Virus record (IMG/VR): IMGVR_UViG_3300018428_003605
Coordinates: 1-24,172 of that record
Origin: a virus
Direction: 5' to 3' (one strand)
DNA: 24,172 bases
Shown: piece after piece, positions 6,210 through 22,502 of the stretch
Layout: each line of letters opens with the position of its first letter
How positions within the stretch are numbered: the stretch's first letter is position 1
Notes under the pieces: generated by a model
The model's database searches: none
Seen by the model: the letters and a program-made list of their open reading frames with translations, nothing else
Told to the model about the DNA's origin: nothing
Translations under genes and position numbers: made by a program

Positions 6210-6977
6210 ATGACTAGATTAGAAGGAAAAGTTAAAAAAGGTTGGGGCCACGAATTGATATGGGCAACCAATGAAAAGTATTGTGGAAAAATTATGGTTT
6301 TTGAAAAAGTAGGGGCCAAATTTAGTATGCATTTCCATAAAGAAAAAGAAGAAACATGGTTTGTAAACAGAGGCCGATTTTTGTTAAAATGGATAGATAC
6401 CAACAATGCAACTATACATAGTAAAGAATTAGTGCAAGGAGACAAATGGCATAATCCGCCTTTACAGCCGCACCAACTTGAAGCATTAGAAGAAATGAGC
6501 GAAATATTTGAAGTAAGCACAGCAGACAGCGTTGAAGATAATTATAGAATATTTCCTGGAAGTAGTCAGCAAACAGGTAAACGTATTATAGTTAACGGAA
6601 GTTTTGATATAGTACACAAAGGACATGTCAATCTACTAAATTATGCAAAATCATTAGGAAACTACCTACTAGTTGCTATTGATACGGATGCTAGAATAAA
6701 AGAATTGAAAGGTGAGGATCGTCCCGTAAATCAACTTGATGAAAGATTACATCTATTACAGAATCTAAAAGCAGTTGATGAAGTTGTTTATTTTGATTCA
6801 GAACAAGAACTAATTGATATTATTAAAAACTACCATCCTGATGTTATGGTTAAAGGTAGTGATTACAAAGATAAGAGAATTGTAGGTGCAGAATATTGTA
6901 ACTCAATTGAATTTTACGAGATAGAAAATGGATATTCAACCACAAGAAAAATTGAAAATATTATTAGTAGGCGATAG
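6210..6977 (+). CDS. Cupin fused to D-glycero-beta-D-manno-heptose 1-phosphate adenylyltransferase domain
   Basis: Residues 1-118 are a cupin with intact ligands (HFHKEKEETW, His41, His43, Glu47 or Glu48; further His81 and His88). Residues 124-255 match the C-terminal domain of HldE: FDIVHKGHVNLL carries the nucleotidyltransferase HxGH site (His136, His139), followed by KGEDRPVNQLDER, DVMVKGSDYK and GYSTTR. In E. coli this domain transfers AMP from ATP to heptose 1-phosphate, giving ADP-heptose. In HldE it is joined to the kinase; here the kinase is a separate downstream gene and a cupin takes its place. It is the first gene of a plus-strand unit and overlaps the kinase gene by 50 bases. The transferase domain is confident. 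The cupin's job is unknown; it might be a sugar isomerase or epimerase or a binding domain. Confidence 0.9.
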   Translation: MTRLEGKVKKGWGHELIWATNEKYCGKIMVFEKVGAKFSMHFHKEKEETWFVNRGRFLLKWIDTNNATIHSKELVQGDKWHNPPLQPHQLEALEEMSEIFEVSTADSVEDNYRIFPGSSQQTGKRIIVNGSFDIVHKGHVNLLNYAKSLGNYLLVAIDTDARIKELKGEDRPVNQLDERLHLLQNLKAVDEVVYFDSEQELIDIIKNYHPDVMVKGSDYKDKRIVGAEYCNSIEFYEIENGYSTTRKIENIISRR

Positions 6978-7680
6978 TTGTATTGACGAATATCACTATG
7001 GGCGAGCTGATAGACTTAGCCCAGAAGCACCTGTCCCTGTATTAAACTTTTCTGAAACAGTTGTCAAACCGGGTATGGCAGCAAATGTAAAAGAAAATTT
7101 AATTTCTTTTGGTTGTAATGTAGAATTTGTTACTAACAAAGAAAAAATTGTAAAATCTAGATACATCGACAAAAGGTCTGGTCAACATTTATTAAGAGTA
7201 GACCAAGAAAACACAGTAAAACCTGTTGATATTGAAAATTTAAATTTAGATGTTGACGCTATTGTTGTAAGTGACTATGATAAAGGGTTTGTTACGGAAG
7301 ATCTAATTATAAATCTTAGAAAAGAATTCATAGGACCTATATTTGTTGACACTAAAAAATTATATCTTGATAAATTTGAAGGTTGTATACTAAAAATTAA
7401 CACACTAGAATACGAAAGAGCAAAAACTTTTTGCTCTGATCTAATTGTAACTAGAGGTAAAGATGGTGCAACATATAAAAACAAAAGTTTTCCTGCACCT
7501 GTAGTTGAAGTTCATGATGTTTGTGGTGCTGGCGATACTTTTTTGTCGGTACTAGCATATTTTTACTTTAAATCCAAAGACATAGAGCTTGCAATAGAAA
7601 AAGCAAACCGAGCAGCAGCAATATGTGTTCAACACAGTGGAGTTTATGTACTCAATAAAAGGGACATTAAGCAATTATGA
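6928..7680 (+). CDS. PfkB-family sugar kinase, HldE N-terminal type (heptose 7-phosphate kinase)
   Basis: The 250-residue protein follows the HldE kinase domain: ILLVGDSCIDEYHYGRADRL, SPEAPVPV, PGMAANV, VVSDYDKG and the ATP/catalytic signature HDVCGAGDT with catalytic Asp203. The known reaction is phosphorylation of D-glycero-beta-D-manno-heptose 7-phosphate at C1. It is shorter than the ~318-residue E. coli domain: a segment of about 25 residues, between the VEFVTN strand and the KSRYIDKR strand, is missing, where the bacterial enzyme has part of the sugar-covering region. The ATG at 6928 lies 50 bases inside the previous gene and has only a weak GAGA upstream; TTG at 6952 is a less likely alternative. 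The stop overlaps the next ATG (ATGA). Confidence 0.9.
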   Translation: MDIQPQEKLKILLVGDSCIDEYHYGRADRLSPEAPVPVLNFSETVVKPGMAANVKENLISFGCNVEFVTNKEKIVKSRYIDKRSGQHLLRVDQENTVKPVDIENLNLDVDAIVVSDYDKGFVTEDLIINLRKEFIGPIFVDTKKLYLDKFEGCILKINTLEYERAKTFCSDLIVTRGKDGATYKNKSFPAPVVEVHDVCGAGDTFLSVLAYFYFKSKDIELAIEKANRAAAICVQHSGVYVLNKRDIKQL

Positions 7681-8489
7681 AGATATTAATCACAGGTCAT
7701 AAAGGATTTATAGGTCAAAATTTAAGATTAGCATTACTAAATGATCATGAATTGTTTGGATACGAGTGGGACAGCGAATTATTACCAGATGTAAAAGGTT
7801 TTGACTGGGTAATTCATCTAGGTGCAATATCTGATACAACTGAACGAGATGTAGATAAGATAATTTTACAAAATTATGAGTTTTCAAAATGGCTTTATAA
7901 TGAATGTAATAGAAAAGATGTAAACTTTCAATACGCATCAAGTGCAAGTGTCTATGGCACTAGTGAAAACTTTGATGAAGATGCTCCTAAGAATCCACAA
8001 AGTCCATATGCTTGGTCAAAATACCTGTTTGATAGATGGCTTTGGAACTTACCTTATCATAAAATAATCGTGCAAGGGTTTAGATACTTCAATGTATATG
8101 GTCCATACGAAGAACACAAAGAAAATCAAGCAAGTCCTATTACAAAATTTACAAAACAAGCAAAAGAAACAGGAAAAATTCAACTATTTGAAGACAGTGA
8201 CCAGTATTTGAGAGATTTTGTTTTTGTAGGTGATATTTGCAAAGCTCATATTCAACTTTTATCGAGCCAAGAGTCGGGATTGTTTAATATTGGTTCGGGC
8301 AACACTACAAGTTTTCAAGAAATTGCTGAAATTATTGCAAAAAAAGAAAATGCAACAATTGAATACATACCAATGCCTAAAATATTAGAAGGTCAATACC
8401 AAAAATACACTTGTGCAGATATTACAAAACTAAAAAATTTAATAAAAATTGATTTTACTACTGTTGAGGACTATATCAATGGATTATGA
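7677..8489 (+). CDS. hldD: NAD-dependent epimerase, ADP-L-glycero-D-manno-heptose 6-epimerase-like
   Basis: An extended short-chain dehydrogenase/reductase of 270 residues. The N-terminus has the NAD(P)-binding TGHKGFIG, followed by HLGAISDTTERD and YASSASVYG, and the catalytic pair is in SPYAWSKY (Tyr111, Lys115). The segment FRYFNVYGPYEEHKENQAS strongly resembles HldD/RfaD, where RYFNVYGP, an HK pair and a downstream Ala-Ser follow in order. HldD inverts C6 of ADP-heptose, the last step before transfer to LPS. The protein is about 40 residues shorter than E. coli HldD (310). It overlaps its upstream neighbour by ATGA and its downstream one by 11 bases. Next to the kinase and adenylyltransferase, heptose specificity is likely, though another NDP-sugar cannot be excluded. 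Confidence 0.88.
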   Translation: MKILITGHKGFIGQNLRLALLNDHELFGYEWDSELLPDVKGFDWVIHLGAISDTTERDVDKIILQNYEFSKWLYNECNRKDVNFQYASSASVYGTSENFDEDAPKNPQSPYAWSKYLFDRWLWNLPYHKIIVQGFRYFNVYGPYEEHKENQASPITKFTKQAKETGKIQLFEDSDQYLRDFVFVGDICKAHIQLLSSQESGLFNIGSGNTTSFQEIAEIIAKKENATIEYIPMPKILEGQYQKYTCADITKLKNLIKIDFTTVEDYINGL

Positions 8490-9144
8490 TATACTTAACA
8501 TTGATTATATATGGAGAATTAATGATTTAGATGTATATTATACCAATGATACTAACGGAGGAGGTGATTATTTTTTACCAGAGTATGCTAGTATTGTAAA
8601 AGAATGGTATGGACAAGTAGATAACATGCTAGAATGGTGTAGTGGGCCTGGTTTTATAGGTTATGGAATGCTTGCTACAGGTTTGTGTAAAAATATTTCT
8701 TTTTCTGAAATATTTAGACCAGCTATTAGTATGTTAAACAAAACTGCTATAGAAAATAACCTTTCTGTAGATATTTTTACTAATGATAGTCTAGATAATA
8801 TAGATAAACAATTCGATTTGGTGGTTGGAAATCCTCCTCACTGGGGGAGTGTTGCAGATGCCAAACACTCCTTGCAAAAATTTGGTAATTATGCACCAAT
8901 GAACGACAGATTGTTACAAGTATTAGTTGATGATGGTTGGAAAACTCATTTAAGTTTTTTTCAAAATATGAAAAAACTGCTAAAAAAAGATGGAAAAATA
9001 CTTTTACAAGAAAATAATACAGGTTCAAATCCTGAATTATTTTCACAATTAATCAAAGATACAGGACTAAAAATTCTTAGCACAGCACAAAGCGTAGAAT
9101 ATAAACCATTAAACATTTATTATTTAGAAGTAGGTCATGCATGA
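8479..9144 (+). CDS. Class I SAM-dependent methyltransferase with NPPH motif
   Basis: I place the start at the ATG at 8479, because GAGGA lies ten bases upstream; a longer reading from 8449 would add ten mostly hydrophobic residues and overlap the epimerase more. The 221-residue protein has a SAM-binding loop LEWCSGPGFIGYGML (residues 51-65), an acidic motif II residue in FSEIFRP, and LVVGNPPHWG (Asn118-His121). NPP[YFWH] motifs occur in enzymes that methylate amide or amino nitrogens, such as PrmC on glutamine or DNA adenine methyltransferases. No DNA recognition domain is visible, so a protein or small-molecule substrate is more likely. It lies between the heptose and oxygenase genes. The target is unknown. 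Confidence 0.85.
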   Translation: MDYDILNIDYIWRINDLDVYYTNDTNGGGDYFLPEYASIVKEWYGQVDNMLEWCSGPGFIGYGMLATGLCKNISFSEIFRPAISMLNKTAIENNLSVDIFTNDSLDNIDKQFDLVVGNPPHWGSVADAKHSLQKFGNYAPMNDRLLQVLVDDGWKTHLSFFQNMKKLLKKDGKILLQENNTGSNPELFSQLIKDTGLKILSTAQSVEYKPLNIYYLEVGHA

Positions 9145-9704
9145 GTATAGATGTAATAGATAATTGTATACCGCAGTTCTATCAAGACATGTTTGAATCT
9201 TTAGCCCTTGGTCGTACAGGAGGCAATGAAATCGAAAATAGTTTGCCTTGGCGTATAAAATATGAACAAACTGCTAAAAATAATGGAGTGTGTCCTATTA
9301 GTTTCAAACATATTTTAAAAAGTGATGCTGAACTATCTAACCATTTAGCTGATTTTGCAAAGATACCTCAAATTATTACTGCAAATCTTAATTATACATT
9401 GGCTGACTTAATGTATGCAAGAGTATTTCTCACTTTACCTTATAAAACAGAACTAAAATACCATTCGCCTCACACAGATTTGAACTATCCTCACACTAGT
9501 TTAATATATTATGTAAACGATAGTGACGGTGACACTGTATTTTTTGAACCAGATATGAAAACAATTTTCCGGAAAGTTTCTCCTAAAAAAGGAAGGTGTG
9601 TATTATTCAATGGTTTAATACCTCACGGTGCTGGAATTCCGTCAAAAGGAGCCAGATGTATTGTAAATTACAATATACAGATAGGAATGAAAAATGAGTT
9701 TTGA
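9141..9704 (+). CDS. 2OG-Fe(II) oxygenase-like protein, canonical HxD
   Basis: This 187-residue protein has the double-stranded beta-helix signature: YHSPHTDLNYPHTSLIYYV supplies His111 and Asp113, GLIPHGAG supplies the distal His162, and ARCIVNYNI supplies Arg172, which would hold the 2-oxoglutarate carboxylate. The family uses O2 and 2-oxoglutarate to hydroxylate proteins, nucleic acids or small molecules. It resembles prolyl-hydroxylase-type phage oxygenases. The gene starts in an ATGA overlap with the methyltransferase and overlaps the next oxygenase by 11 bases. All four key residues are present, so activity is plausible; the substrate is not known. Confidence 0.85.
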   Translation: MSIDVIDNCIPQFYQDMFESLALGRTGGNEIENSLPWRIKYEQTAKNNGVCPISFKHILKSDAELSNHLADFAKIPQIITANLNYTLADLMYARVFLTLPYKTELKYHSPHTDLNYPHTSLIYYVNDSDGDTVFFEPDMKTIFRKVSPKKGRCVLFNGLIPHGAGIPSKGARCIVNYNIQIGMKNEF

Positions 9705-10329
9705 AGATAATGTTATGGAAGTGCCATTCTTTTCTCAAGAAGAATGCCAAGAAATAAAGGAATGGGCATTTGATTTTGAGAAAAAATTAATACAATCAGG
9801 ATTCGAAGATTACAAACCAGCACCAGAATTTTTTGATAATGTAACTACTTCTAACTATCATCATTATAATTTCTTTCATTTTTTCCCACATCATGCAGAA
9901 AGACTTGTAGACTGTCTTTATCATGTAAACAAAGATTTAGAATGGCCTATTATATGTCAGGCTTGGGTGAACATTTATAGAAAAGGACAGGGTATAAATT
10001 GGCATAACCATCAAGGAAGAATGGGCAAAAGTTTTAGTTGCAATGTTTTCATTGACGGTGACACAAAACCAGGTGTTACTTATAAACCATTTAACAGTAA
10101 GGGCATAACAAGAGAAAACAAAATAGGATTTATGCATATATTTCCTTGTGAACTTTTTCATTATGTGCAGCCAAGCGAATCAGATACTCCAAGAATTACT
10201 CTAGGAATGACTGTTCACAGCAATTCGGATATAAATATTAACATTATTAATCAATTAGCTTTTAATAGTAAGCAATATCAAGATTCGATAATACTAACTA
10301 AGGAACATTATGAGCAATCCTCATCCTAA
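9694..10329 (+). CDS. 2OG-Fe(II) oxygenase-like protein, HxH variant
   Basis: The 211-residue protein shows QAWVNIYRKGQGINWHNHQG, then SFSCNVFIDG, a distal His in ELFHYVQPSE (His156) and Arg167 in TPRITLGM. This layout fits the phage 2OG-FeII_Oxy_5/TIGR02466-type group. The first iron ligand pair is His104-x-His106 instead of His-x-Asp, so the metal site would be three histidines if His106 is a ligand. The N-terminal 80 residues are helical and rich in aromatic and histidine residues (NYHHYNFFHFFPHH). GGAA precedes the ATG. It overlaps both neighbours in the plus-strand unit. Family assignment is good; catalysis is uncertain. Confidence 0.78.
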   Translation: MSFEDNVMEVPFFSQEECQEIKEWAFDFEKKLIQSGFEDYKPAPEFFDNVTTSNYHHYNFFHFFPHHAERLVDCLYHVNKDLEWPIICQAWVNIYRKGQGINWHNHQGRMGKSFSCNVFIDGDTKPGVTYKPFNSKGITRENKIGFMHIFPCELFHYVQPSESDTPRITLGMTVHSNSDININIINQLAFNSKQYQDSIILTKEHYEQSSS

Positions 10330-10651
10330 AGTTCGTTGTAGCCATATATTATTAAGCCACGAAGATGCAATAGAATCTTCACACAGTAGGCAGCTATATT
10401 TTGCTGTATGGGATGCCAAGCAAATTATAGGTGAATTAATTCGTGGCGGTATAACTTGGGGTACGGCTGTAAAGGAACACAGTGCTTGTCCGCACAGTTG
10501 GTATCGTGATGGTGATTTAGGATGGTTTGATATAAATGATGGAGTTGTACCGGAGCTCTATTATAGTGTGCTTGCAGCACCCAAAGACCAATTACTAGAA
10601 GAGCCGATACAAACTCCATATGGAATACATATTATTGTAAGAACTGGTTAG
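10310..10651 (+). CDS. Parvulin-type peptidyl-prolyl cis-trans isomerase
   Basis: This compact 113-residue protein matches a stand-alone parvulin domain. Visible are KVRCSHILLS (His12), KEHSACPHSW (Cys60), DGDLGWF, the VVPE segment and QTPYGIHIIV (His107). These correspond to the conserved His, Cys and His of E. coli PpiC and Pin1. The reaction is cis-trans isomerisation of peptide bonds before proline. There is no signal peptide, so it acts in the cytoplasm. It closes the plus-strand unit, after two oxygenases, and AAGGAA lies before its ATG. A folding or maturation role for proline-containing virion proteins is a reasonable inference. It overlaps the oppositely oriented next gene by 4 bases. 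Confidence 0.9.
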   Translation: MSNPHPKVRCSHILLSHEDAIESSHSRQLYFAVWDAKQIIGELIRGGITWGTAVKEHSACPHSWYRDGDLGWFDINDGVVPELYYSVLAAPKDQLLEEPIQTPYGIHIIVRTG

Positions 10652-10977
10652 TCTAGCTCGCCGTTAATTGTAAAGTTTGTTAAAACACCTGATGCTGGAG
10701 TGTTTCTGTTAGAAACATTTACAACACCATCTGGTGTATCAGGATTCATAGACAAATTATATTTATTTTGAATAATTTCGTCGTCTTGCCCAATTTCATA
10801 TCCTATTTCTACAACTTCACAACCTTTGTCTGGATGATATGAATTTACCCAGGCTTGTGCTAGTTCTTGTGTTGGAAATTTTCTAATTTCCTCGTATCCA
10901 TCACCGTCAGGATCCCATGAGTGCCAGACTTTTACATTAGCATGTGTCGGATGTGGTTTTTTAACTGCGTATGGCAT
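10648..10977 (-). CDS. Protein of unknown function
   Basis: A 109-residue protein that I do not recognise. The first half contains a compact region with VKVWHSWDPDGDGYEEIRKF and TQELAQAWVNSYHPD, which looks like a small alpha/beta fold; DPDGDGYEE resembles a Ca2+-binding loop but has no partner helix-loop-helix. The second half is polar with many Asn, Thr and Pro, probably extended. AGGAG seven bases before the ATG is a strong ribosome binding site. It is the last gene of the long minus-strand unit, and its end overlaps the parvulin gene tail to tail. Confidence 0.65.
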   Translation of the reverse strand: MPYAVKKPHPTHANVKVWHSWDPDGDGYEEIRKFPTQELAQAWVNSYHPDKGCEVVEIGYEIGQDDEIIQNKYNLSMNPDTPDGVVNVSNRNTPASGVLTNFTINGELD

Positions 10978-10986
10978 TAATATCTC

Positions 10987-11544
10987 CTATAATTCTTCTG
11001 CAAAATCTTGCAAAGAGTTAAAAACATAAGTTCTATTTTTTATGTTTTTATATATGTATTTATCCAAATCCTTCTCAGTTTCAAGACCGTGGCCTGTTCT
11101 AACTAGTACAGGTCTAGCTCCTACTTTTTTTGCGGCTTTTAAATCTGTTAATTTATCACCAACATAAAAGCTATTTTTCCATCTCAAACCTGGGATATCT
11201 TTTTGACACATTTTAAACATACCTGTATTTGGTTTTGCATATATGTCTTTTTTACTACTAGTTTCGCTATAGTATATCCCATCAATGCTTTCACAACCAG
11301 CTTGACCTAACAACCAAAGCATATGTTCGTGAATTGCGTTAACATCTTCAGCAGTCATTAATCCTTTGGCAATGCCACCTTGATTTGTTATAATAACAAT
11401 GCCATAACCTTTGTGTCTTAGATTAGCAATAGCTTCTAAACTACCAGGTATAGGTTCAAAGTCTCTCGGATGTGTACAGTAATCTCCAAGATCAGTATTA
11501 ATTACGCCGTCCCTATCTAGCCCTATAAAGACTTTACTCGTCAT
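10987..11544 (-). CDS. gmhB: HAD-family phosphatase, D-glycero-D-manno-heptose 1,7-bisphosphate 7-phosphatase-like
   Basis: The 185-residue protein carries the GmhB-type HAD motif FIGLDRDGVIN (nucleophile Asp10, general acid Asp12), motif II in IVIITNQGGIAKG, a lysine in IYAKPNTGMF and motif IV in FYVGDKLTDLKAAK. GmhB removes the 7-phosphate between the HldE kinase and adenylyltransferase steps, exactly the reaction missing from the plus-strand unit. E. coli GmhB has a cysteine-rich zinc loop before the KPxxGM motif; here that loop is shortened to ETSSKKDIY and has no cysteine. Such loop-less forms belong to the same HAD subfamily, and histidinol-phosphate phosphatase is the main alternative, but the neighbours favour heptose. 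It overlaps the upstream oxygenase by 11 bases. Confidence 0.85.
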   Translation of the reverse strand: MTSKVFIGLDRDGVINTDLGDYCTHPRDFEPIPGSLEAIANLRHKGYGIVIITNQGGIAKGLMTAEDVNAIHEHMLWLLGQAGCESIDGIYYSETSSKKDIYAKPNTGMFKMCQKDIPGLRWKNSFYVGDKLTDLKAAKKVGARPVLVRTGHGLETEKDLDKYIYKNIKNRTYVFNSLQDFAEEL

Positions 11545-12127
11545 ATGTATACCATCCTGTGATGATGTACTTTAGTCCTTTGTAAATAGGGTTGCCTCTA
11601 TGCGGATGCGTAAAGGCTGTAGGAAAAATTACTAATTTGCCTTCTTCAGGAGCAATGCGTTTACCTTGATATAAGAATTCTGTCTCACCTCCTTCTTCCA
11701 CATTATTAAGATATACCATATAATTTACAACTCTACAGGCACTACTTTTACAGGCCGCTTCTGCATGCCAAGCATGATATCCTTGGTGTGGACTTGTGCG
11801 TTGCACATTCATTCCTTTTGCACTATGTTGTTTGCTATGCTGAAGTATGCTATATTTTTGCATGTATTCATTAGTATATATTTCTTTGAGCCTTTCATAA
11901 AAATAATCACAAATCTTGTAATCATAGTGATATACGCCTTGTGTATGAGCCCAATCAAATACTATACGGTCATCAGTAACAAATCCATGCCCTTGTCTAT
12001 TAGCATTAATAACTCGATTGTCGTCTAGTGTTTCAAAATGCCTGATTACTTCTTGGCAAAAATCTTTATCAAAAGCATTAGGATATTCTTCTATTCCTGA
12101 ATAATCTTCGTATGTTTTCTCTACCAT
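11534..12127 (-). CDS. 2OG-Fe(II) oxygenase-like protein, HxE
   Basis: In this 197-residue protein YHAWHAEAA provides His121 and Glu123, and FPTAFTHPHRGNP provides the distal His174. The cosubstrate position reads KGLKYIITGWY, with Lys186 where most relatives have Arg. The strand MVYLNNVEEGGETEF is characteristic of prolyl-4-hydroxylase-like members (YLN..EEGGET). The acidic ligand is Glu instead of Asp, a known but rarer variation. A preceding region rich in His and Lys (LQHSKQHSAKG) is unusual. It starts near the end of the SGNH gene with a 7-base overlap. This is the clearest P4H-like member of the cluster; the target residue is unknown. Confidence 0.85.
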   Translation of the reverse strand: MVEKTYEDYSGIEEYPNAFDKDFCQEVIRHFETLDDNRVINANRQGHGFVTDDRIVFDWAHTQGVYHYDYKICDYFYERLKEIYTNEYMQKYSILQHSKQHSAKGMNVQRTSPHQGYHAWHAEAACKSSACRVVNYMVYLNNVEEGGETEFLYQGKRIAPEEGKLVIFPTAFTHPHRGNPIYKGLKYIITGWYTYDE

Positions 12128-12924
12128 GCTTTCTCCTTTACATATGGTATATATCTCTTTGCAATAGCATCATGCACATCTGTTGAATAATGTTCTCCAT
12201 CTACTGTATCTATTTTTATATATTTTTTTAAATAATTTTCAGCATCTTTAGGTGCGATCTTAGCATCTAGTTTTGTATAATAATCTTTAGTTTCTTTTGG
12301 TATATAACATCTATCATTAATATTCCATATATACATATTTGCATTATTTTTTGAACATAAATTGTCGCACATAGTCATATATGTGAAATAGTCTTCCTGT
12401 TCAAGATTAGTGTTACTATAATGCCACATTTGCATATACAAATGAGAAGATCTTCTAATATCGGGTTCTGTTTTCCAAACTTGTGTGTCTCGTATATAAG
12501 GAAAATGATCGTAATCGCTTACATCTGGTTTTAAATATGTTTCTAAATATTTGTTGTTAGGTGAAAGTGCAATACTATATCTGTCTATTGTATCTGTAGA
12601 AAAGTTTTCATCTATAAAAAAGTCTAACGGAAATATTTTCTTTGCATCTAAGTCAGGATTTATTGCAATAGGAAATCTACCCCAGTATGTGCTTTGAACA
12701 AAAACTTCTGTTATATCTTTGTATTTTTTAAAGGCATATGATAAAAATCTAGGAAATGCTCTATTTCCTGCTCCTGCACTTGCCATAATTACAACTTGCT
12801 GACCAGTATTTTTACTGTATATTTCTGCATAATTATTATCACGCCATACGTTAGGCTCGTTGGGCGGCGCATCTTCTCTATAACCCATTGTATGACTACA
12901 ACCTACAAATAATGTTCTACCCAT
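12121..12924 (-). CDS. SGNH/GDSL hydrolase-like protein
   Basis: I choose the ATG at 12924, because GAGG lies six bases upstream and it gives the typical start MGRTLFVGCSHTMG; an in-frame ATG at 12942 would only lengthen the overlap with the previous gene. The 267-residue protein has the N-terminal FVGCSHT in place of GDS, with Ser10 as candidate nucleophile, SAGAGNRAF as candidate Gly/Asn block, and a C-terminal DGEHYSTDVHDAIAKRY with histidines placed as in block V. Such enzymes are esterases, often removing or adding acyl groups on glycans. GCS instead of GDS makes activity uncertain. A second SGNH-like protein lies at 15716-16411. Confidence 0.65.
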   Translation of the reverse strand: MGRTLFVGCSHTMGYREDAPPNEPNVWRDNNYAEIYSKNTGQQVVIMASAGAGNRAFPRFLSYAFKKYKDITEVFVQSTYWGRFPIAINPDLDAKKIFPLDFFIDENFSTDTIDRYSIALSPNNKYLETYLKPDVSDYDHFPYIRDTQVWKTEPDIRRSSHLYMQMWHYSNTNLEQEDYFTYMTMCDNLCSKNNANMYIWNINDRCYIPKETKDYYTKLDAKIAPKDAENYLKKYIKIDTVDGEHYSTDVHDAIAKRYIPYVKEKAW

Positions 12925-13468
12925 ATGTTGCCTCAAAGTCAAAAACCATTACTCTGCGCTCATCAATAGTAGGATACGCTCCGTGCCAAATACGTGCATC
13001 CATAATTAACAACAATCCTTTTTTAGGTTGCCACCAATTCACATGTGTTTCGCCTTTTTCATCTTGTAATACTGCGTAGAAGGCCCCTTCATCGTTAGGC
13101 TGATCTTCAATATCGTCAAAGTATAGAACTGCTGTACAACCTGTACGACCTTTAGTATGATTGTGCATACCTTTCCAGCCGCCTGGAAAATAACGGATAC
13201 TCCAAGTTTGTATATGATCGTGTATTGTACACGGCACGTCACCTTCTGCTAGTATTGTGTTAGTTTTATCAATTATAAAATCAGCAACACCCTTTGTTTC
13301 TTCTAAGGTGTGTGGTATTTGATAACCGTTAACAGTTGTACTTCTACCAGGCTCTACAAGGTTAGGATGGTCGCTATCAAATAAATGTTCATAGTCTTTC
13401 CACATAGGAACATGTGTTTCTACTATCCACTGATTATTTGCAATGTAAAGTGTATCATTCATTTGCAT
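12917..13468 (-). CDS. 2OG-Fe(II) oxygenase-like protein, HxH variant
   Basis: The 183-residue protein has SIRYFPGGWKGMHNHTKGR with His102-x-His104, then CTAVLYFDDI, the distal His162 in ARIWHGAYP and Arg171/Arg172 in DERRVMVFDFEA. The fold order fits the oxygenase-like group, and the iron motif again has His in place of Asp. MQM at the start offers two ATG codons (13468 and 13462); neither has a strong Shine-Dalgarno sequence, so translation may depend on coupling to the overlapping upstream gene. A conserved Asp/Glu-rich stretch (DDIEDQPNDEGAF) separates the two halves. Substrate unknown. Confidence 0.78.
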   Translation of the reverse strand: MQMNDTLYIANNQWIVETHVPMWKDYEHLFDSDHPNLVEPGRSTTVNGYQIPHTLEETKGVADFIIDKTNTILAEGDVPCTIHDHIQTWSIRYFPGGWKGMHNHTKGRTGCTAVLYFDDIEDQPNDEGAFYAVLQDEKGETHVNWWQPKKGLLLIMDARIWHGAYPTIDERRVMVFDFEATYG

Positions 13469-14069
13469 TTGCAGGTCTTATAACAAAGTTTGCGGCAATA
13501 GTTGCACGTCTGCTGTCTGTTTTGTTAGGTAATACATAGTGTGATACCCAACTAGGAAACAATACAAGTGTGCCTTTTTGTAAAGGTGGTGTAATATGTT
13601 GGTAGTTGTAGGCATTAAAGATCCTATCCATGCCACTACTACGTATTGTTGGAAAATTAGGACATTCTAGTACCAACTGCCCGCCTACGTCTTTCTCTTG
13701 ATCTGGAAAATCTAACACATAAACTGCACTTAAACTGCGTCCTGGAAAAGCATGATCATGAGGTTCTTGATAGTCACCCTTTTTATATTTGTTAAACCAC
13801 ATCTCGTCACAGAATACACTATATGGCACTTGCGGGTCAAGTTTTTCAAGGTATTTGTTTATATGAGGCTGTACAGCATCAAACCATATTTTCCAAGGCA
13901 GTTTATCATTGTTTTCATTTCTTATACTGCTCTTTGTATTAGCCATAGTCCACAAGCTATCTGAAATATAAGATTCATCTTCAATATATGGATCCCATTC
14001 TTTTAAAATATCATCAGCTTCAGTTAGAACATTTGTATAAAAATGTGTTTCCCAAAACTTTACGTGCAT
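13455..14069 (-). CDS. 2OG-Fe(II) oxygenase-like protein, HxH variant (2OG-FeII_Oxy_5-like)
   Basis: The start at 14069 forms TAATG with the stop of the upstream gene, so I prefer it over an ATG nine bases earlier (14078). The 204-residue protein contains DEMWFNKYKKGDYQEPHDHA (His104 and His106), SLSAVYVLDFP, LVLFPSWVSHYVLPN (His177) and RRATIAANFVI. The sequence FPSW.SH.V.PN is the hallmark of the TIGR02466/2OG-FeII_Oxy_5 group. It lies in a chain of four oxygenase genes joined by overlaps. With HDH the second position is Asp but the third is His, so which residue binds iron needs a structure. Family assignment is strong. Confidence 0.83.
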   Translation of the reverse strand: MHVKFWETHFYTNVLTEADDILKEWDPYIEDESYISDSLWTMANTKSSIRNENNDKLPWKIWFDAVQPHINKYLEKLDPQVPYSVFCDEMWFNKYKKGDYQEPHDHAFPGRSLSAVYVLDFPDQEKDVGGQLVLECPNFPTIRSSGMDRIFNAYNYQHITPPLQKGTLVLFPSWVSHYVLPNKTDSRRATIAANFVIRPANANE

Positions 14070-14572
14070 TACACCCATCCATTCTGTTCAGCATTAAAGA
14101 AAAATACTTGTGTTAGTCTGCCCGTTTTAGGAGAATCACCAAATCCTGCAAGTAGGCTTGCATGATCCATATTTCCATCATACAGCACAAGTCTATTATA
14201 AACATTACCAATAACATTTACAAGATCGTAACCTCCATCTTTTTCTAAATATAAACCTGTTCCTGATTCTGTAGGTGCATCTGGATTAAGGTATAAAACA
14301 CCTGCCCAATCACATCCGTCTTTGTGTATCCAAGTTTCAGCACCTTCGTAACATAGTTGAAAGCAAAAACTGTCCATAACAAATTCAGTTATACTTACAT
14401 TTAATATTTCTTGGAACCTATGATGGATAAACATCTGATAATCATCATCACATGCAAGACTACGCATACCAGGAAATTCTCCTGTAGTAGGATAATCTAA
14501 CTGGATTGCTTGTTCTCTAACAAGATCAGGTGCAGGTAAAAAGTTGTCTATAACTATTGATGTTTTCTTCAT
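14069..14572 (-). CDS. 2OG-Fe(II) oxygenase-like protein, HxD (DUF6445-like)
   Basis: This 167-residue protein begins with VIDNFLPAPDLVREQAIQLD, a typical start of small phage oxygenases. ETWIHKDGCDWAGVLYLNPD gives His83 and Asp85; RLVLYDGNMDHAS gives the distal His137; and GRLTQVFFFN gives Arg152. The core YLNPDAPTESGTGLY and the MDHAS...GFGD segment match the DUF6445-type family as I remember it. All canonical residues are present. The gene's ATG overlaps the stop of the upstream gene in TAATG, and its own stop does the same with the next one. Confidence 0.83.
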   Translation of the reverse strand: MKKTSIVIDNFLPAPDLVREQAIQLDYPTTGEFPGMRSLACDDDYQMFIHHRFQEILNVSITEFVMDSFCFQLCYEGAETWIHKDGCDWAGVLYLNPDAPTESGTGLYLEKDGGYDLVNVIGNVYNRLVLYDGNMDHASLLAGFGDSPKTGRLTQVFFFNAEQNGWV

Positions 14573-15090
14573 TACATAAAATCCATATAAATATTGCCAC
14601 TTATAGTAGTGCCTGTATTTCCAGGCATTACAAAGTGTTCTATAAAACTAGGAAAGATAACTATATCTCCTTGCTTACATTCTGGTCGAAAATCTAAAGG
14701 AAATTCTGGAACACTACTACCAAACTGATTTTGAACATCTTTAAATAACGGACTCATAAAAACAGTTTTGCCAGTTTCAACTGACTCATAGATTACAAAA
14801 CTCCAACTACTACGTGGATGTATGTGTATGTCTTGCCAGTCATTCTTTTCATATTTGTTGCGCCATATTTCTCCAAATCTTGGATTTTGACCAATTAGAT
14901 CTGGACCTAAGTTGCGTCCAAATACTTCTATTAGGTATTCGTATGTGGTTTCAGATATTTCGTGTTGTTGTCCTAGTGTGCTGTTAGTTTTACTTAGCCA
15001 AATCTTTTCATAAGGGGCTTCGCCTATGTCAATACGATCTAAGTCAACTTGATCGATAAAAAACGGAACATGGAATAGATTATGCTTCAA
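14572..15090 (-). CDS. 2OG-Fe(II) oxygenase-like protein, HxH variant without cosubstrate arginine
   Basis: The 172-residue protein shares EIWRNKYEKNDWQDIHIHPR and IVIFPSFIEHFVMPGN with the 2OG-FeII_Oxy_5 group, giving His89, His91 and His152. Where relatives carry Arg about ten residues after the distal His, this protein reads TGTTISGNIYM, without a basic residue. It therefore may not bind 2-oxoglutarate in the usual way and could be an inactive or altered member. It starts four bases inside the upstream oxygenase gene (ATGA-type overlap) and ends in TAATG with the next. Relation to the family is clear; catalytic competence is doubtful. Confidence 0.78.
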   Translation of the reverse strand: MKHNLFHVPFFIDQVDLDRIDIGEAPYEKIWLSKTNSTLGQQHEISETTYEYLIEVFGRNLGPDLIGQNPRFGEIWRNKYEKNDWQDIHIHPRSSWSFVIYESVETGKTVFMSPLFKDVQNQFGSSVPEFPLDFRPECKQGDIVIFPSFIEHFVMPGNTGTTISGNIYMDFM

Positions 15091-15722
15091 CCAAATCTCC
15101 TTGCTGGCAAAGGCACACTGCGCATAGTCTTATATACTAGTGTTGCACGTAGTCCTTTGTATTTTTCGTTAGGTGGTAACCCATGATGTGGAATATTACC
15201 TTTGAACAAGAAAATACGTCCTGGCTTTGGATATACTTTCTTCCATTCGCCGTCAAGTTTAATAATTGTTTCTCCGCCCCATTCTTCTTTCCACTCTCTG
15301 TTTACATAATAGATCCAACTTAATCCATTGTCACACTGACAGTCTGTGTGTTCTGTAGTGTTGTGTATAAACTGCTGGCCGTTAACAAGGATTTCACCTA
15401 TATCTAACTCAAATGGTATAAGACTAGTAACAGCATCATATATCATATTCCAGCAACTATCATGTGCATTGTTACTATGTGGCGGATATATCTGTTGTTT
15501 GAATGCAGGAACTTCAGGCCAATCTGGATCTGCTCCTACGTCATACAACGGATCTTCGTGGTAGTTACTAGTATGACCATATGTCCAATTATATCCGTTA
15601 AATACAGTTTTATGAACGTGATCAATAACATATTGTGGGAACATATCATCAATCACAATCATTTGATCTTTTGCTAGATCAAATTCAGATAAGTCTTTTG
15701 CTTCTTTGTCGTTAATCAACAT
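15087..15722 (-). CDS. 2OG-Fe(II) oxygenase-like protein, canonical HxD
   Basis: A 211-residue protein whose core reads QQFIHNTTEHTDCQC (His125, Asp127), LSWIYYVNREW, EEWGGETII, PGRIFLFKGNIPHHGLPP (distal His179 or His180) and LRATLVYKT (Arg192). WGGET with the following strand is a prolyl-hydroxylase-like hallmark. The N-terminus (MIVIDDMFPQYVIDHVHKTV) matches other phage oxygenases. It is the most canonical member of the minus-strand group and the first in transcription order among four consecutive oxygenases. It overlaps the SGNH gene by 7 bases. Substrate not known. Confidence 0.86.
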   Translation of the reverse strand: MLINDKEAKDLSEFDLAKDQMIVIDDMFPQYVIDHVHKTVFNGYNWTYGHTSNYHEDPLYDVGADPDWPEVPAFKQQIYPPHSNNAHDSCWNMIYDAVTSLIPFELDIGEILVNGQQFIHNTTEHTDCQCDNGLSWIYYVNREWKEEWGGETIIKLDGEWKKVYPKPGRIFLFKGNIPHHGLPPNEKYKGLRATLVYKTMRSVPLPARRFG

Positions 15723-16411
15723 TTAATAAATTCCTTTTTAAAACTATCTGAAAGATTAAGTTCTTTACTTTCTGTAGATAGACATTGGTATAATTTGTTT
15801 GCAAAAATCTTATGGTTTTCTTTACTCATATGATTTTGCCTCGGATCTACTCCGTAATGTTTGTACCATTTTTTCCTTTCGATGTCATTAATAAATTCTA
15901 AGTTTGCTATGTCTGACATTGTTCCGTTCACTTCGGGACATGGTTCAAAACCTGGTATTATTTTCCACTGATTACTAGCTGTAATGTTTAGTATTGTATA
16001 TAATCCATAAAAACATTGTTGATATAAAATACTGTCAGACTGCGGGTGATGTAAGCAACTCATGTATTCTTTTACTGCTTGTTTTGTTTTTTTATTAATT
16101 ACGTCATTAAATTGACTATCTAAGATATTATGGTAATTTCCATATGTTGGATCGTTTTCTAAAAACCATCTCCTACTCGGATCTGTTAGTTGTACTAGAA
16201 CATAATCAGTTTCATGAATTTTTTGTGCATCATCAACAACAGTTTTAAATATGTATTCATTTGCATATCCATAACCAGAGCGGTATTCTATAGTATCACA
16301 ACCTAGCAACTTAGCCAATTGTACCGACCATATAGAAAAATTATTTTCTAAAGGAGGCAATTCTTCATTATACGGAGCTGAAAAACTGTCTCCAAAAATC
16401 CATAGCTTCAT
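15716..16411 (-). CDS. SGNH/GDSL hydrolase-like protein
   Basis: The 231-residue protein begins MKLWIFGDSFSAPY, with GDS at residues 7-9 as the nucleophile block. EYRSGYGYANEYIF may be the Gly/Asn block, VLVQLTDPSRRW follows a hydrophobic strand, and DPRQNHMSKENHKIFANKLY near the C-terminus carries the expected Asp/His pair. Such proteins are esterases or acyl-group transferases acting on carbohydrates. The start shares a base with the carbamoyltransferase stop (TAATG), placing it among the sugar-modifying genes. It differs from the protein at 12121-12924 in having an intact GDS. The specific substrate is unknown. Confidence 0.75.
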   Translation of the reverse strand: MKLWIFGDSFSAPYNEELPPLENNFSIWSVQLAKLLGCDTIEYRSGYGYANEYIFKTVVDDAQKIHETDYVLVQLTDPSRRWFLENDPTYGNYHNILDSQFNDVINKKTKQAVKEYMSCLHHPQSDSILYQQCFYGLYTILNITASNQWKIIPGFEPCPEVNGTMSDIANLEFINDIERKKWYKHYGVDPRQNHMSKENHKIFANKLYQCLSTESKELNLSDSFKKEFIKC

Positions 16412-18216
16412 TAATTAGAAACCTTTGCTAACAGGCCGTGTTCTGCGATGTACAAGTATTCAATTTCACTACTTGCAAGTGTTCTAAATGCATCGTCAAG
16501 TGTTTCTACCAAAGGCTCGCCACCTAAGTTGAAACTTGTATTAAATATAATTGGTACGCCTGTTTTTTCATAATATTCTTTAATGTACTTATAGTATAGT
16601 GGGTTTTGACTTTCTGTTACTGTTTGTATACGGCAAGTTCCATCTACATGAATAATGCTTGGAATCTTTTCTTCAACACCTTCTTGACAGTTAACAGCAT
16701 ACATCATGTGCGGTGTTTCGTCCAGGCCGCGCAAATCAAACCATTCATGTACGTGTTCAGCAAGTATTGTACCAGCAAATGGACGGAAGTATTCACGGCG
16801 CTTGATACGGTTTACCCAGTCTTTACCGTCCTTAAATGTAGGATCGAACATAAGGCTTCTATTTCCTAATGCACGTGGTCCTGATTCAGAACGTCCTTGG
16901 AACATAGCAACAATGTTTTTGTCACACATAATATCTACTACTTCTTTATCTGTAGCTTCTACAAGTGTTGCATTGTATTTTTCTGCTGTTGCTTCAACAT
17001 CTTGTTTTGAATAATCATACTTAGGACCCAAGTAAAGACTTTCACCATATGGCATTACTTCTTCACTGTTTGTAAGTTGATGATATGCAAAGTATGCTGC
17101 ACCAATCGCTGTACCTGCATCACTACTAATAGGTTCAACATACAGTTTGATGCCATGTTTGTTTAATTCTGTAAGATAAAAATAGTTTGCTACACAATTT
17201 AGTCCATAACCACCCGACAACACAACATTTTTGTTTCCAGTCCTCTCTACTGCATCTAATATAAGATTTAAAACTTGTTGCTGTGTCTGTGTTTGCACAG
17301 CATATGCAAGATCTCTTCTGTTTTCAAGTTTTGTAACATCATCTTTTTGATAATCAAAGTTTTCTGGAGTGCGTAAAAACTTATATCTACCTTCATTGAT
17401 CCTTGAACTATTAGGATAAGTTGGAATAGTTACATGTCTATTTGCACAAGTCCATTCACCTTCATCTGTAAATAAAGGAGGAATAGCATCATTAGGCTTA
17501 CCATATGGAAATAAGCCCATAGTCTTACCCGCTTCAATTGCTTGGAAGCCACAATAATTTGTAACTGCTTCGTATACTTTCGTTATACCTGCACCGTCAC
17601 TGATAATACATTCATGTGTACCGGATTCATCATATCTTTCGCTACTCATATCCGGTACCCAAGCATTCCTAAACGGACCATTGCCACCTAAATGTTTGTA
17701 TAAAGTTTTGATTTCAAATGGGTATTTACAATCAAATATTGTTTCTAATTCAAACACCATATGATTTTCGCCTTCTTCTAAACTTAGCGGAATAAAAGTG
17801 CCTGCGCCGTCAACAATAACTGCTGTAGCAGTTTCAAATCCACTTCGATAGAATGCACAAGCCGCATGTAATTTGTGATGCATATGTGATAAGTCTACAA
17901 CTTGTGGATGTTTGTAAATGTCAACATTTGTTTGTTGATCAATAAGTCCTAGCTTACGTGCTAGACCTGTGTATACATCATCACCTGTAAAATCAACTCT
18001 TGCCGCTGTTTCATTTAGTGGCTGAGTATGTGCTATCACCAAGTAGTCAAGTTTATCAGTGTATTTTAGTATCTTCACCATAGAAGCAAAAGGACCACCA
18101 TCATATTTGTGTCTTGACAATCTTTCTTCTTCTATTGCAAAAACTATTTCGCCATCTTTAAGCAAACATACACCGCCATTATGTCCGCGTGTAATAGCTG
18201 CTATCCATTTAGTCAT
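16411..18216 (-). CDS. O-carbamoyltransferase, NodU/CmcH family
   Basis: The 601-residue length is normal for the family. The N-terminal domain starts with RGHNGGVCLLKDGEIVFAIE and EERLSRHK, then HHKLHAACAFYRSGF (residues 113-127), the metal-site motif HHxxHA, and VIVDGAGT. The C-terminal domain has LSGGYGLNCVAN, SSDAGTAIGAA, GRSESGPRALGNRS and VPIIFNTSFN, all highly typical. Enzymes of this family move a carbamoyl group from carbamoyl phosphate, through an adenylate, to a hydroxyl of a sugar or antibiotic. It follows the GT9 gene by two bases and precedes the SGNH gene, so the target is probably a sugar made or transferred here. Carbamoyltransferase genes occur in several cyanomyoviruses. 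No sign of truncation. Confidence 0.95.
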   Translation of the reverse strand: MTKWIAAITRGHNGGVCLLKDGEIVFAIEEERLSRHKYDGGPFASMVKILKYTDKLDYLVIAHTQPLNETAARVDFTGDDVYTGLARKLGLIDQQTNVDIYKHPQVVDLSHMHHKLHAACAFYRSGFETATAVIVDGAGTFIPLSLEEGENHMVFELETIFDCKYPFEIKTLYKHLGGNGPFRNAWVPDMSSERYDESGTHECIISDGAGITKVYEAVTNYCGFQAIEAGKTMGLFPYGKPNDAIPPLFTDEGEWTCANRHVTIPTYPNSSRINEGRYKFLRTPENFDYQKDDVTKLENRRDLAYAVQTQTQQQVLNLILDAVERTGNKNVVLSGGYGLNCVANYFYLTELNKHGIKLYVEPISSDAGTAIGAAYFAYHQLTNSEEVMPYGESLYLGPKYDYSKQDVEATAEKYNATLVEATDKEVVDIMCDKNIVAMFQGRSESGPRALGNRSLMFDPTFKDGKDWVNRIKRREYFRPFAGTILAEHVHEWFDLRGLDETPHMMYAVNCQEGVEEKIPSIIHVDGTCRIQTVTESQNPLYYKYIKEYYEKTGVPIIFNTSFNLGGEPLVETLDDAFRTLASSEIEYLYIAEHGLLAKVSN

Positions 18217-18218: not shown

Positions 18219-19250
18219 TTATTTCTCTCCGAATCTTTTTATTGTAGTGTTTCCAGGAACTAGTTTAGGTACGGGTGTAGATTTATTTTCCTGTGTAGAT
18301 TTTTGTTTAGTTGATGGTCCAAGTTTATCCCTAACACTTTTTAAGATTTTATCTATTTGAGTTTTATCTAGCTCCATTACTTCATCATTCATTCTATCTT
18401 GTTCTTCTTCTATAGTAAGTCTAATTGGGGCATAAATTCTTTTGCCATCTCCTACATCTATAATATCAAAGTTTTTATCTTCAGGATAGGATATGTTTAC
18501 AGGATATGTAGACCCTGTAACAATAGTTGCTGTTTTTCCTAGAGCTTTTACAATGTGTTGACCTAAACTATCACAACCTAAAAAGTAATCTGCTACTTCT
18601 ATTATTCCTGCCCATATCCTCATATCCGGAATTTCTGGTTGTGCTACTGGGTATTGTGTATTAGGTGTTTTATCAATTGACACAGGATGTTCACTCATAA
18701 TAATAACACCGTATTCTTTTCTTAATTGATCAATTATATCAATAATGTTATTAAGTTGAAAACTTCTCGATGTTGTATCTATTAGGAAACTTCCTATATT
18801 TTCAATTGTTCTACCAAAAGGCTGTACAACTAAAACTTTATCAAAACCTGTGACTTGTTTAACTTCTTCTACAACATTTGCTGCACTTACAATTTCTTGT
18901 TTATTTAAAATTAAAGTAGGTCTATCTAAGTGTCTTACACCTTTGTTGTTAATTTCAATATCAAATGCTTGTGATAAACTGCATTTTTGATTGTAATATT
19001 CCCATACACGATAAGGTTCAGGACTTACACAATTACGGTCTTTAATATAAGTTTCAAATAAACCTTTGTGCCAATGATCAAAAACTCTTTTGTATAGAGT
19101 AGGGTGTCCTTTATAAAAATCAGTTCCGCCTTCACATACAATTATAAAATTGTCGTTTGGATTTTCTTTTTCGTATAGTTCAAATGCAGGAATGCTTGCA
19201 ATAACCCTTCCTGCTCCGCCGTTAATAAAAAATGCTGTAGATCTTGCCAA
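18219..19250 (-). CDS. Glycosyltransferase family 9-like protein (heptosyltransferase-like)
   Basis: The start codon is TTG at 19250, supported by AGGAGA just upstream. The 343-residue protein has INGGAGRVIASIPAFELYE at its N-terminus (acceptor-domain glycine loop of GT9) and ADYFLGCDSLGQHIVKALGK with ATIVTGST in the C-terminal domain, equivalent to the ADP-heptose-binding D.fiG.DSG..H motif. GT9 enzymes add L-glycero-D-manno-heptose from ADP-heptose to LPS core or proteins. Two departures are clear: the usual DSG reads DSL, and residues ~312-343 form an unstructured, Lys/Ser/Thr/Pro-rich tail. With phage genes for ADP-heptose synthesis close by, heptose transfer is the best guess. It is the first gene of its unit, behind a late-promoter-like box. 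Confidence 0.75.
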   Translation of the reverse strand: MARSTAFFINGGAGRVIASIPAFELYEKENPNDNFIIVCEGGTDFYKGHPTLYKRVFDHWHKGLFETYIKDRNCVSPEPYRVWEYYNQKCSLSQAFDIEINNKGVRHLDRPTLILNKQEIVSAANVVEEVKQVTGFDKVLVVQPFGRTIENIGSFLIDTTSRSFQLNNIIDIIDQLRKEYGVIIMSEHPVSIDKTPNTQYPVAQPEIPDMRIWAGIIEVADYFLGCDSLGQHIVKALGKTATIVTGSTYPVNISYPEDKNFDIIDVGDGKRIYAPIRLTIEEEQDRMNDEVMELDKTQIDKILKSVRDKLGPSTKQKSTQENKSTPVPKLVPGNTTIKRFGEK

Positions 19251-19302
19251 AGTAATTCTCCTATTATGTTTATAATAGCATAGGTTCTAACTTATTGCAA
19301 GA

Positions 19303-19310
19303 TATTTATT
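19303..19310 (-). promoter_or_regulatory. Putative T4-type late promoter box (AATAAATA)
   Basis: AATAAATA on the minus strand, one mismatch from TATAAATA, lies 52 bases upstream of the TTG start of the GT9 gene and directly downstream of the hairpin at 19321-19351. A terminator followed by a promoter in a 99-base spacer marks the border between the tail-gene unit and the glycan/oxygenase unit. Confidence 0.5.
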
Positions 19311-19320
19311 GGGGTTGATA

Positions 19321-22485: not shown

Positions 22486-22502
22486 GTAATTTCTATCCTC
22501 TA

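What the first reader, a model, noticed from the sequence alone, without database searches (positions are those of the whole stretch)
9141..15722. Eight 2OG-Fe(II) oxygenase-like genes within 6.6 kb of a phage genome
Eight distinct proteins with the oxygenase beta-helix layout lie at 9141, 9694, 11534, 12917, 13455, 14069, 14572 and 15087, split over two converging units, four of them in one overlapping chain. Marine T4-like phages are known to carry several such genes, but this density is striking. They are diverged from one another, so they are not simple recent duplicates. Their position between tail genes, with a prolyl isomerase and a glycan-modifying set, suggests sequential modification of virion proteins or sugars.
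Basis: partly seen in the sequence, partly recalled or inferred. Interest (0 to 1): 0.78.

Follow-up and report, generated by a model that had tools for sequence, protein, structure and literature searches.

The report
Oxygenase-rich phage tail-adhesin modification cassette
A marine virus of bacteria carries eight different oxygen-using enzyme genes packed beside its tail-tip genes, inside a sugar-attachment gene set that recurs in dozens of marine viruses, which suggests that these viruses chemically decorate the tip they use to grab their hosts.

Summary
All eight ORFs are conserved, under purifying selection, and match double-stranded beta-helix (DSBH) oxygenase families by profile; two predicted structures gave DSBH folds. 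They are old, separate lineages (17-32% identical), not recent duplicates.

One correction: only four (9141, 11534, 14069, 15087) keep the canonical HxD/E...H...R/K site. The other four (9694, 12917, 13455, 14572; PF13759 type) have invariant HxH...H, and 14572 also lacks the C-terminal Arg. Their 2OG dependence is untested.

The eight sit in a module that recurs in IMG/VR contigs and in cultured cyanophages (S-SSM7, Sf-FS3, P-SSM2, S-CAM1/3): tail fibre, one to three Cys/Gly-rich adhesin-like proteins, GT9-like transferase, carbamoyltransferase, ADP-heptose genes. Adhesin and carbamoyltransferase are constant partners (65/65 and 69/69 testable loci); oxygenase number varies from 0 to 8, eight being the maximum seen.

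Best reading: a virion-modification cassette that oxidises, heptosylates and carbamoylates the tail-tip adhesin or its glycan. The gene association is shown; substrate, reaction and order are inferred. Multiple 2OG genes in marine phages were already published; I found no description of this linkage or of the HxH split.

The parts
9141..9704 (+). OX1, DSBH oxygenase, PF13640, HxD...H...R
9694..10329 (+). OX2, DSBH protein, PF13759, HxH...H...R
10310..10651 (+). parvulin-type prolyl isomerase (PpiC)
   Evidence: PF00639 6.5e-9
10648..10977 (-). small conserved protein of unknown function
   Evidence: no family hit; conserved in related loci
10987..11544 (-). GmhB-type heptose bisphosphate phosphatase
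   Evidence: NF006506 1.5e-43, 148 bits, below its cut-off of 178
11534..12127 (-). OX3, DSBH oxygenase, PF13640, HxE...H...K
12121..12942 (-). conserved SGNH-hydrolase-like protein
   Evidence: invariant GCSH, GN and D..H blocks; Pfam hit weak (Lipase_GDSL_2 0.2 in one member)
12917..13468 (-). OX4, DSBH protein, PF13759-like, HxH...H...R
13455..14078 (-). OX5, DSBH protein, PF13759, HxH...H...R
14069..14572 (-). OX6, DSBH oxygenase, DUF6445, HxD...H...R, prolyl-hydroxylase fold
14572..15090 (-). OX7, DSBH protein, PF13759, HxH...H, no C-terminal Arg, invariant Arg77
15087..15722 (-). OX8, DSBH oxygenase, PF13640, HxD...H...R
15716..16411 (-). SGNH-like protein, seen only in the window
   Evidence: sequence motif GDS...D..H by eye; no homologue in related loci
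16411..18216 (-). NodU-type carbamoyltransferase
   Evidence: PF16861 1e-56, PF02543 4e-27, phrog_1601 4e-165
18219..19250 (-). GT9-like glycosyltransferase (probable heptosyltransferase)
   Evidence: PF01075 in 2 of 11 orthologues, best 1.1e-4
19251..19349 (-). terminator-like hairpin, AATAAATA box and sigma70-like promoter (TTGCAA-17-TATTAT)
19350..20063 (-). protein with Phage_tail_APC (tail assembly chaperone) domain
   Evidence: PF16778 1.6e-9
20100..20909 (-). Cys/Gly-rich adhesin-like tail protein 1
20918..21697 (-). Cys/Gly-rich adhesin-like tail protein 2
21709..22524 (-). Cys/Gly-rich adhesin-like tail protein 3
6210..6977 (+). cupin domain fused to HldE-type cytidylyltransferase-like domain
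   Evidence: PF01467 3e-17, phrog_7878 1e-41
6928..7680 (+). HldE-type heptose 7-phosphate kinase
   Evidence: TIGR02198 6e-44, 150 bits, below its cut-off of 345
7677..8489 (+). HldD-type ADP-heptose 6-epimerase
   Evidence: TIGR02197 2e-72, 244 bits, below its cut-off of 274.6
8449..9144 (+). methyltransferase that neighbours OX1 here and in contigs G001 and G007
   Evidence: PF05175 6.6e-9

Best explanation
The eight genes are the oxidation arm of a virion-modification cassette of a T4-like marine phage that is probably not a cyanophage. SHOWN: the eight DSBH-type genes run together with, or converge on, genes for a GT9-like transferase, a carbamoyltransferase and an ADP-heptose pathway. 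The block follows one to three Cys/Gly-rich adhesin-like tail proteins and a tail-chaperone-domain protein, and this order recurs across many marine phages. The unit from the transferase onward has its own conserved promoter and terminator region. INFERRED: the canonical enzymes (OX1, OX3, OX6, OX8) hydroxylate side chains of the adhesin or carbons of its glycan. Phage-made ADP-heptose is transferred by the GT to the adhesin, and the carbamoyltransferase caps hydroxyls of that glycan. The HxH proteins (OX2, OX4, OX5, OX7) perform further oxidations with a three-histidine iron site, or act as sugar- or peptide-binding partners. Different oxygenase sets would diversify the receptor-binding tip between phages.
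For: GT survey: a Cys/Gly-rich protein lies directly upstream in 65/65 testable loci and a carbamoyltransferase downstream in 69/69, while oxygenases in the densest 6.6 kb vary 0-8. The same skeleton with 0-5 oxygenases sits in cultured S-CAM1, S-CAM3, P-SSM2, Sf-FS3 and S-SSM7 beside tail genes. OX1, OX3, OX6 and OX7 are related to S-SSM7/Sf-FS3 cassette genes. Cyanobacterial LPS lacks heptose and KDO (PMC4390846), so the heptose genes of the cyanophage versions are hard to explain as host LPS synthesis. OX6 is closest in fold to protein prolyl hydroxylases, among them P. putida P4H, solved in complex with EF-Tu. Motifs are invariant and dN/dS is low.
Against: No substrate, product or proteomic data. 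S-CAM1 and S-CAM3 have the Cys-rich proteins and glycan genes with no oxygenase in the cassette, so oxidation is not required for the core function. The 'adhesin' role is inferred from position and composition; no Pfam domain was found. The heptose kinase, phosphatase and epimerase score below NCBIfam cut-offs, no GmhA isomerase was found in the window, and HMM evidence for GT9 is weak.
Confidence: 0.55

Rival explanations
1. The cassette remodels host LPS or capsule during infection (superinfection exclusion or release), with heptose, carbamate and hydroxyl groups added to host surface glycans; the neighbouring tail genes merely share the receptor theme.
For: ADP-heptose, GT9-like and, in related contig G001, KDO-type genes are LPS-core chemistry. 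The modification unit has a sigma70-like promoter of its own.
Against: The cyanophage versions infect hosts whose LPS lacks heptose and KDO (PMC4390846). The Cys-rich tail genes are the constant neighbours (65/65), with the tail-chaperone-domain gene directly adjacent in the window.
Confidence: 0.15
2. The four HxH proteins are not oxygenases but non-catalytic or metal-binding DSBH (cupin-like) proteins, for example sugar- or peptide-binding assembly factors; only four true 2OG oxygenases exist here.
For: All PF13759-type proteins here and in S-SSM7/Sf-FS3 have HxH. OX7 lacks the C-terminal Arg expected to bind 2OG.
Against: The three histidines are invariant, and the Arg is kept in OX4 and OX5 and in 9 of 10 OX2 homologues, as in an active site. 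Three-histidine non-haem iron oxygenases exist (EgtB, PMC13426267).
Confidence: 0.2
3. The enzymes act on nucleic acids (AlkB-like repair, as proposed for Syn9 2OG genes) or on 2OG/nitrogen signalling (Sullivan et al. 2010).
For: Published proposals for cyanophage 2OG genes (PMC2984593, PMC3037559). AlkB is the second-best fold group for OX7 (Z about 11-12).
Against: No replication or repair gene lies in the cassette; the neighbours are tail and glycan genes in every relative examined.
Confidence: 0.08

Closest known systems
S-SSM7 / Sf-FS3 cyanophage tail-fibre cassette (NC_015287 98-114 kb, PV340856 94-107 kb)
   Same: Cys/Gly-rich proteins x3, tail-chaperone-domain protein, GT (58-61% identical), carbamoyltransferase, HldE/HldD genes, five and four DSBH oxygenases
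   Different: Cyanophages with about 20 oxygenase-like places genome-wide, a tryptophan halogenase (S-SSM7) and a second carbamoyltransferase-like gene; no stretch with eight oxygenases in 6.6 kb among those examined; the OX8 orthologue lies elsewhere in the genome
2OG gene sets of HTVC023P-type pelagiphages (PMC9599517)
   Same: Eight distinct non-orthologous 2OG-Fe(II) families in one phage group
   Different: Podoviruses; genes near but not adjacent; partnered with ferrochelatase, not with an adhesin/heptose/carbamoyl cassette
Cyanomyovirus 2OG-FeII oxygenases (Sullivan et al. 2010, PMC3037559)
   Same: Same Pfam superfamily; 14 of 16 genomes carry them, up to five listed per genome
   Different: Interpreted there as 2OG metabolism or DNA repair, not as part of an adhesin cassette
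Peptidyl prolyl-4-hydroxylases (P. putida P4H 4j25/4iw3, PHD2)
   Same: Predicted fold of OX6 (Z about 15) and HxD...H...R motif
   Different: Sequence identity about 10-24%; substrate of OX6 unknown
2rg4 and 3bvc (PF13759, uncharacterised proteins of Oceanicola and Roseovarius)
   Same: Best fold matches of OX7 (Z 13.4-13.7); same HxH motif
   Different: No known function; OX7 lacks the C-terminal Arg

Membership tests
2OG-Fe(II) oxygenase superfamily (OX1, OX3, OX6, OX8) | double-stranded beta-helix fold | tested here: met
   OX6 predicted and matched to P4H/PHD2 at Z about 15; OX1, OX3 and OX8 by profile only
2OG-Fe(II) oxygenase superfamily (OX1, OX3, OX6, OX8) | HxD/E...H metal triad | tested here: met
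   invariant in 12, 32 and 54 distinct sequences for OX1, OX3 and OX6; OX8 HxD 19/19, third His 15/19
2OG-Fe(II) oxygenase superfamily (OX1, OX3, OX6, OX8) | C-terminal Arg/Lys that binds the 2OG carboxylate | tested here: met
   R172, K186, R152 and R192 invariant
2OG-Fe(II) oxygenase superfamily (OX2, OX4, OX5, OX7) | HxD/E...H metal triad | tested here: not met
   HxH...H invariant in 10, 29, 49 and 17 distinct sequences; also in 2rg4/3bvc and S-SSM7/Sf-FS3 homologues
2OG-Fe(II) oxygenase superfamily (OX2, OX4, OX5, OX7) | C-terminal Arg/Lys that binds the 2OG carboxylate | tested here: inconclusive
   present in OX2, OX4 and OX5; replaced by T/S/A in OX7, which has invariant Arg77 instead
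2OG-Fe(II) oxygenase superfamily (OX2, OX4, OX5, OX7) | double-stranded beta-helix fold | tested here: met
   OX7 predicted, Z 13.4-13.7 to 2rg4/3bvc and about 10-12 to AlkB and P4H; the others by profile only
PF13759 (2OG-FeII_Oxy_5) | profile match over the curated cut-off | tested here: inconclusive
   OX2, OX5 and OX7 over 27 bits; OX4 below it (20.2 bits)
2OG-Fe(II) oxygenase superfamily (all eight) | 2OG- and O2-dependent turnover of a substrate | not testable with these tools
   needs purified protein
ADP-heptose pathway | isomerase, kinase, phosphatase, adenylyltransferase and epimerase | tested here: inconclusive
   the last four are best hits, but kinase, phosphatase and epimerase lie below NCBIfam cut-offs; no GmhA isomerase found in the window
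GT9 heptosyltransferase | PF01075 profile match | tested here: inconclusive
   2 of 11 orthologues, best 1.1e-4; the window protein itself has no hit
cyanomyovirus | psbA photosystem gene (PF00124) | tested here: inconclusive
   absent from 12 related contigs up to 262 kb, but these may be incomplete; terminase of G001 is closest to PA5oct-like phages at 54%

The most novel reading that the evidence does not exclude
A widespread marine phage system builds a multiply oxidised, heptosylated and carbamoylated cysteine-rich receptor-binding tip, using canonical 2OG oxygenases together with a previously unrecognised three-histidine (HxH...H) class of DSBH oxygenase (PF13759).
Probability: 0.25. Interest if true: 0.85.

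Novelty: new variant of a known kind. Interest (0 to 1): 0.6.

Why it matters
Marine phages are full of '2OG-Fe(II) oxygenase' genes with no known role; published guesses are DNA repair or 2OG metabolism. The constant linkage of this group to a Cys/Gly-rich tail protein, a glycosyltransferase and a carbamoyltransferase gives a concrete, testable role: making or varying the host-binding tip. It can be tested on cultured phages (S-SSM7, P-SSM2, S-CAM1). The HxH observation also says that the Pfam family PF13759, annotated as 2OG-Fe(II) oxygenase, may use a different metal site, which would affect annotation in bacteria and algal viruses too.

Tried and rejected
Recent tandem duplication: rejected, 17-32% identity and separate clades with 97-100 bootstrap. 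Assembly or ORF artefact: rejected, an independent contig G007 has all eight in order. 'DNA endonuclease V' (phrog_274) and 'minor coat protein' (phrog_1644) labels: no support; S-SSM7 'denV' hits PF13640 and no endonuclease family in Pfam. DNA-level match to known phages: none by megablast. Host inference from the HemE gene of G001: no relative found in genome contigs. Profile comparison of OX4 with OX5 and of OX6 with OX8 gave low probabilities with shallow alignments, though the motif columns of OX4 and OX5 line up. PDB sequence search for the GT: no useful hit. Literature: no held paper joins cyanophage, heptose, carbamoyltransferase and tail fibre, or cyanophage, cysteine-rich, tail and adhesin. 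I expected the oxygenases to be strictly tied to the Cys-rich proteins; S-CAM1 and S-CAM3 have Cys-rich proteins without cassette oxygenases, so that idea was dropped.
Full report
CHECK OF THE OBSERVATION. The window is a 24,172-base IMG/VR virus record. All eight ORFs are present as stated. Profile searches place OX1 (9141), OX3 (11534) and OX8 (15087) in PF13640, OX2 (9694), OX5 (13455) and OX7 (14572) in PF13759, OX6 (14069) in DUF6445, and OX4 (12917) below the PF13759 cut-off but in phrog_81 at 1e-9. Five of the eight (OX8 to OX4), not four, form one end-to-end overlapping chain.

FOLDS. I spent the two structure predictions on OX6, whose Pfam family has no assigned function, and OX7, which lacks a key residue. 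OX6 gave pLDDT 92.4; its nearest solved folds are protein prolyl hydroxylases: Foldseek best 4j25 (P. putida P4H) at 5e-6, VIA-align Z about 15 over about 150 residues to PHD2, P4H and OGFOD1. OX7 gave pLDDT 79.5; its best matches are 2rg4 and 3bvc (Z 13.7 and 13.4), then AlkB and P4H at Z about 10-12.

ACTIVE SITES. In orthologues from related contigs the metal-site residues are essentially invariant. OX1, OX3, OX6 and OX8 have HxD/E...H...R/K. OX2, OX4, OX5 and OX7 have HxH...H. The same HxH is seen in the PF13759-type proteins of S-SSM7 and Sf-FS3 and in the two PDB members. OX4 and OX5 keep the C-terminal Arg, as do 9 of 10 OX2 homologues; OX7 has T, S or A there but an invariant Arg77 on an earlier strand, which could stand in for it (inference; not checked on coordinates). 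So 'eight 2OG-Fe(II) oxygenases' should read: four canonical, four of a three-histidine variant whose cofactor use is unknown. One paper gives HX[DE] as part of the conserved core of the superfamily (PMC10598087). Three-histidine iron sites do occur in other oxygenases such as EgtB (PMC13426267).

REALITY AND AGE. Two scans found about 25 related IMG/VR loci. Their common order is: tail fibres, Cys-rich x3, chaperone-domain protein, GT, carbamoyltransferase, OX8, OX7, [heptose kinase and epimerase in some], OX6, OX5, OX4, SGNH-like, OX3, GmhB, small protein, then the converging PpiC, OX2, OX1 unit. Contig G007 holds all eight in order. dN/dS is at most about 0.35, and about 0.015-0.06 for OX4-OX8 against the closest relative L007. 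Each OX orthologue group is a well-supported clade; deep branches are long and the backbone is unsure. OX1, OX3, OX6, OX7 and OX8 group with proteins of S-SSM7/Sf-FS3 (OX1 with moderate support).

WHERE IT SITS. In cultured cyanophages the same skeleton lies next to tail fibre and, in four of them, the gp13 neck gene: S-SSM7 (five oxygenase-like genes in it), Sf-FS3 (four), P-SSM2 (one at the cassette end, more further on), S-CAM1 and S-CAM3 (none). I surveyed the 80 best IMG/VR matches to the GT, out of at least 563. A Cys/Gly-rich protein lies just upstream in 65/65 loci with enough sequence, and a carbamoyltransferase downstream in 69/69. The densest 6.6 kb holds 0-8 oxygenases; among 59 loci with 8 kb downstream the commonest value is five, and eight occurs once, in G007, besides the window itself. 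The survey is biased to close GT relatives and contains near-identical contigs.

REGULATION. Between the chaperone-domain gene and the GT there is a terminator-like hairpin (sequence varies, a stem recurs) followed by a conserved AATAAATA box and a sigma70-like promoter, TTGCAA-17-TATTAT in the window. The combined pattern matches in 19 of 145 fetched loci (some overlapping), once each and just upstream of the GT. The box resembles the T4 late promoter TATAAATA (own knowledge; inference).

PHAGE IDENTITY. Contig G001 (115.6 kb) carrying the cassette has gp23, tail sheath and a terminase closest to PA5oct-like phages at 54%, so it is T4-like. psbA is absent from 12 related contigs up to 262 kb. 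G001 also encodes a TonB-dependent receptor, uroporphyrinogen decarboxylase and KDO-type enzymes, which points to a heterotrophic Gram-negative host (inference). The host is not identified.

MECHANISM. I favour modification of the tail-tip adhesin or its glycan. Shown: gene linkage, folds of two proteins, motifs, conservation. Inferred: phage-made ADP-heptose is used by the GT9-like enzyme on the adhesin; the carbamoyltransferase caps it; oxygenases hydroxylate side chains or sugar carbons. A useful argument is that cyanobacterial LPS has no heptose (PMC4390846), so the cyanophage versions need another acceptor. Against: cassettes without any oxygenase exist, so the oxygenases are add-ons; no product is known. 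Rivals are host-surface remodelling, non-catalytic HxH proteins, and the older DNA-repair or 2OG-signalling ideas (PMC2984593, PMC3037559).

NOVELTY. Multiple 2OG genes in marine phages are published (PMC3037559: up to five listed per cyanophage; PMC9599517: eight non-orthologous families in HTVC023P-type pelagiphages). Cyanophage heptose genes have been noted and attributed to LPS synthesis (PMC7378029). I found no paper in the held library on the linkage to Cys-rich tail proteins plus heptose and carbamoyl genes, or on the HxH site of PF13759. The library lacks most subscription journals, so this is not proof of novelty. I rate it a new variant of a known kind.

Noticed in passing
20100-22524: Three paralogous tail proteins with very high cysteine and glycine content (about 8-12% Cys, 14-18% Gly in the relatives), next to the GT in every testable related locus; no Pfam match. 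Possibly disulphide- or metal-stabilised receptor-binding tips.
   Followed up: partly
PHROGs phrog_274, phrog_1644, phrog_2297; S-SSM7 SSSM7_124 'denV' (L044 18960-19514): Families labelled 'DNA endonuclease V', 'minor coat protein' and 'DNA endonuclease' match DSBH oxygenases; S-SSM7 'denV' hits PF13640 and no endonuclease family. These labels look wrong.
   Followed up: partly
19251-19349: Terminator-like hairpin plus conserved AATAAATA box and sigma70-like promoter separating tail genes from the modification unit.
   Followed up: yes
6110-6190: Divergent GATAAATA boxes (T4 late-promoter-like) between the tail fibre gene at 4689-6107 and the plus-strand heptose/oxygenase unit.
   Followed up: no
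15716-16411: SGNH-like ORF found only in the window among the related loci, inserted between carbamoyltransferase and OX8.
   Followed up: no
11534-12127 compared with L007, L026, L028, L029: OX3 is 91-93% identical to four contigs but about 60-68% to the others, and its dS to L007 (1.71) is far above that of neighbouring genes (0.27-0.58): suggests exchange of OX3 alleles by recombination.
   Followed up: partly
2620-4680: Subtilisin-like (S8) protein among the tail fibre genes, identified by eye from its D/H/S motifs; homologues near the cassette in related contigs.
   Followed up: no
L064 (G001:17500-21500): A second carbamoyltransferase, an OX1 orthologue and the methyltransferase form a separate three-gene unit elsewhere in contig G001, so MTase and OX1 stay paired when relocated.
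   Followed up: yes
L034 (G001:20001-40000): This phage contig encodes a TonB-dependent receptor, uroporphyrinogen decarboxylase and KDO-type synthase and cytidylyltransferase genes.
   Followed up: partly
L044 19511-20998 (S-SSM7): An annotated tryptophan halogenase gene sits inside the S-SSM7 version of the cassette, hinting at halogenation as a further modification.
   Followed up: no
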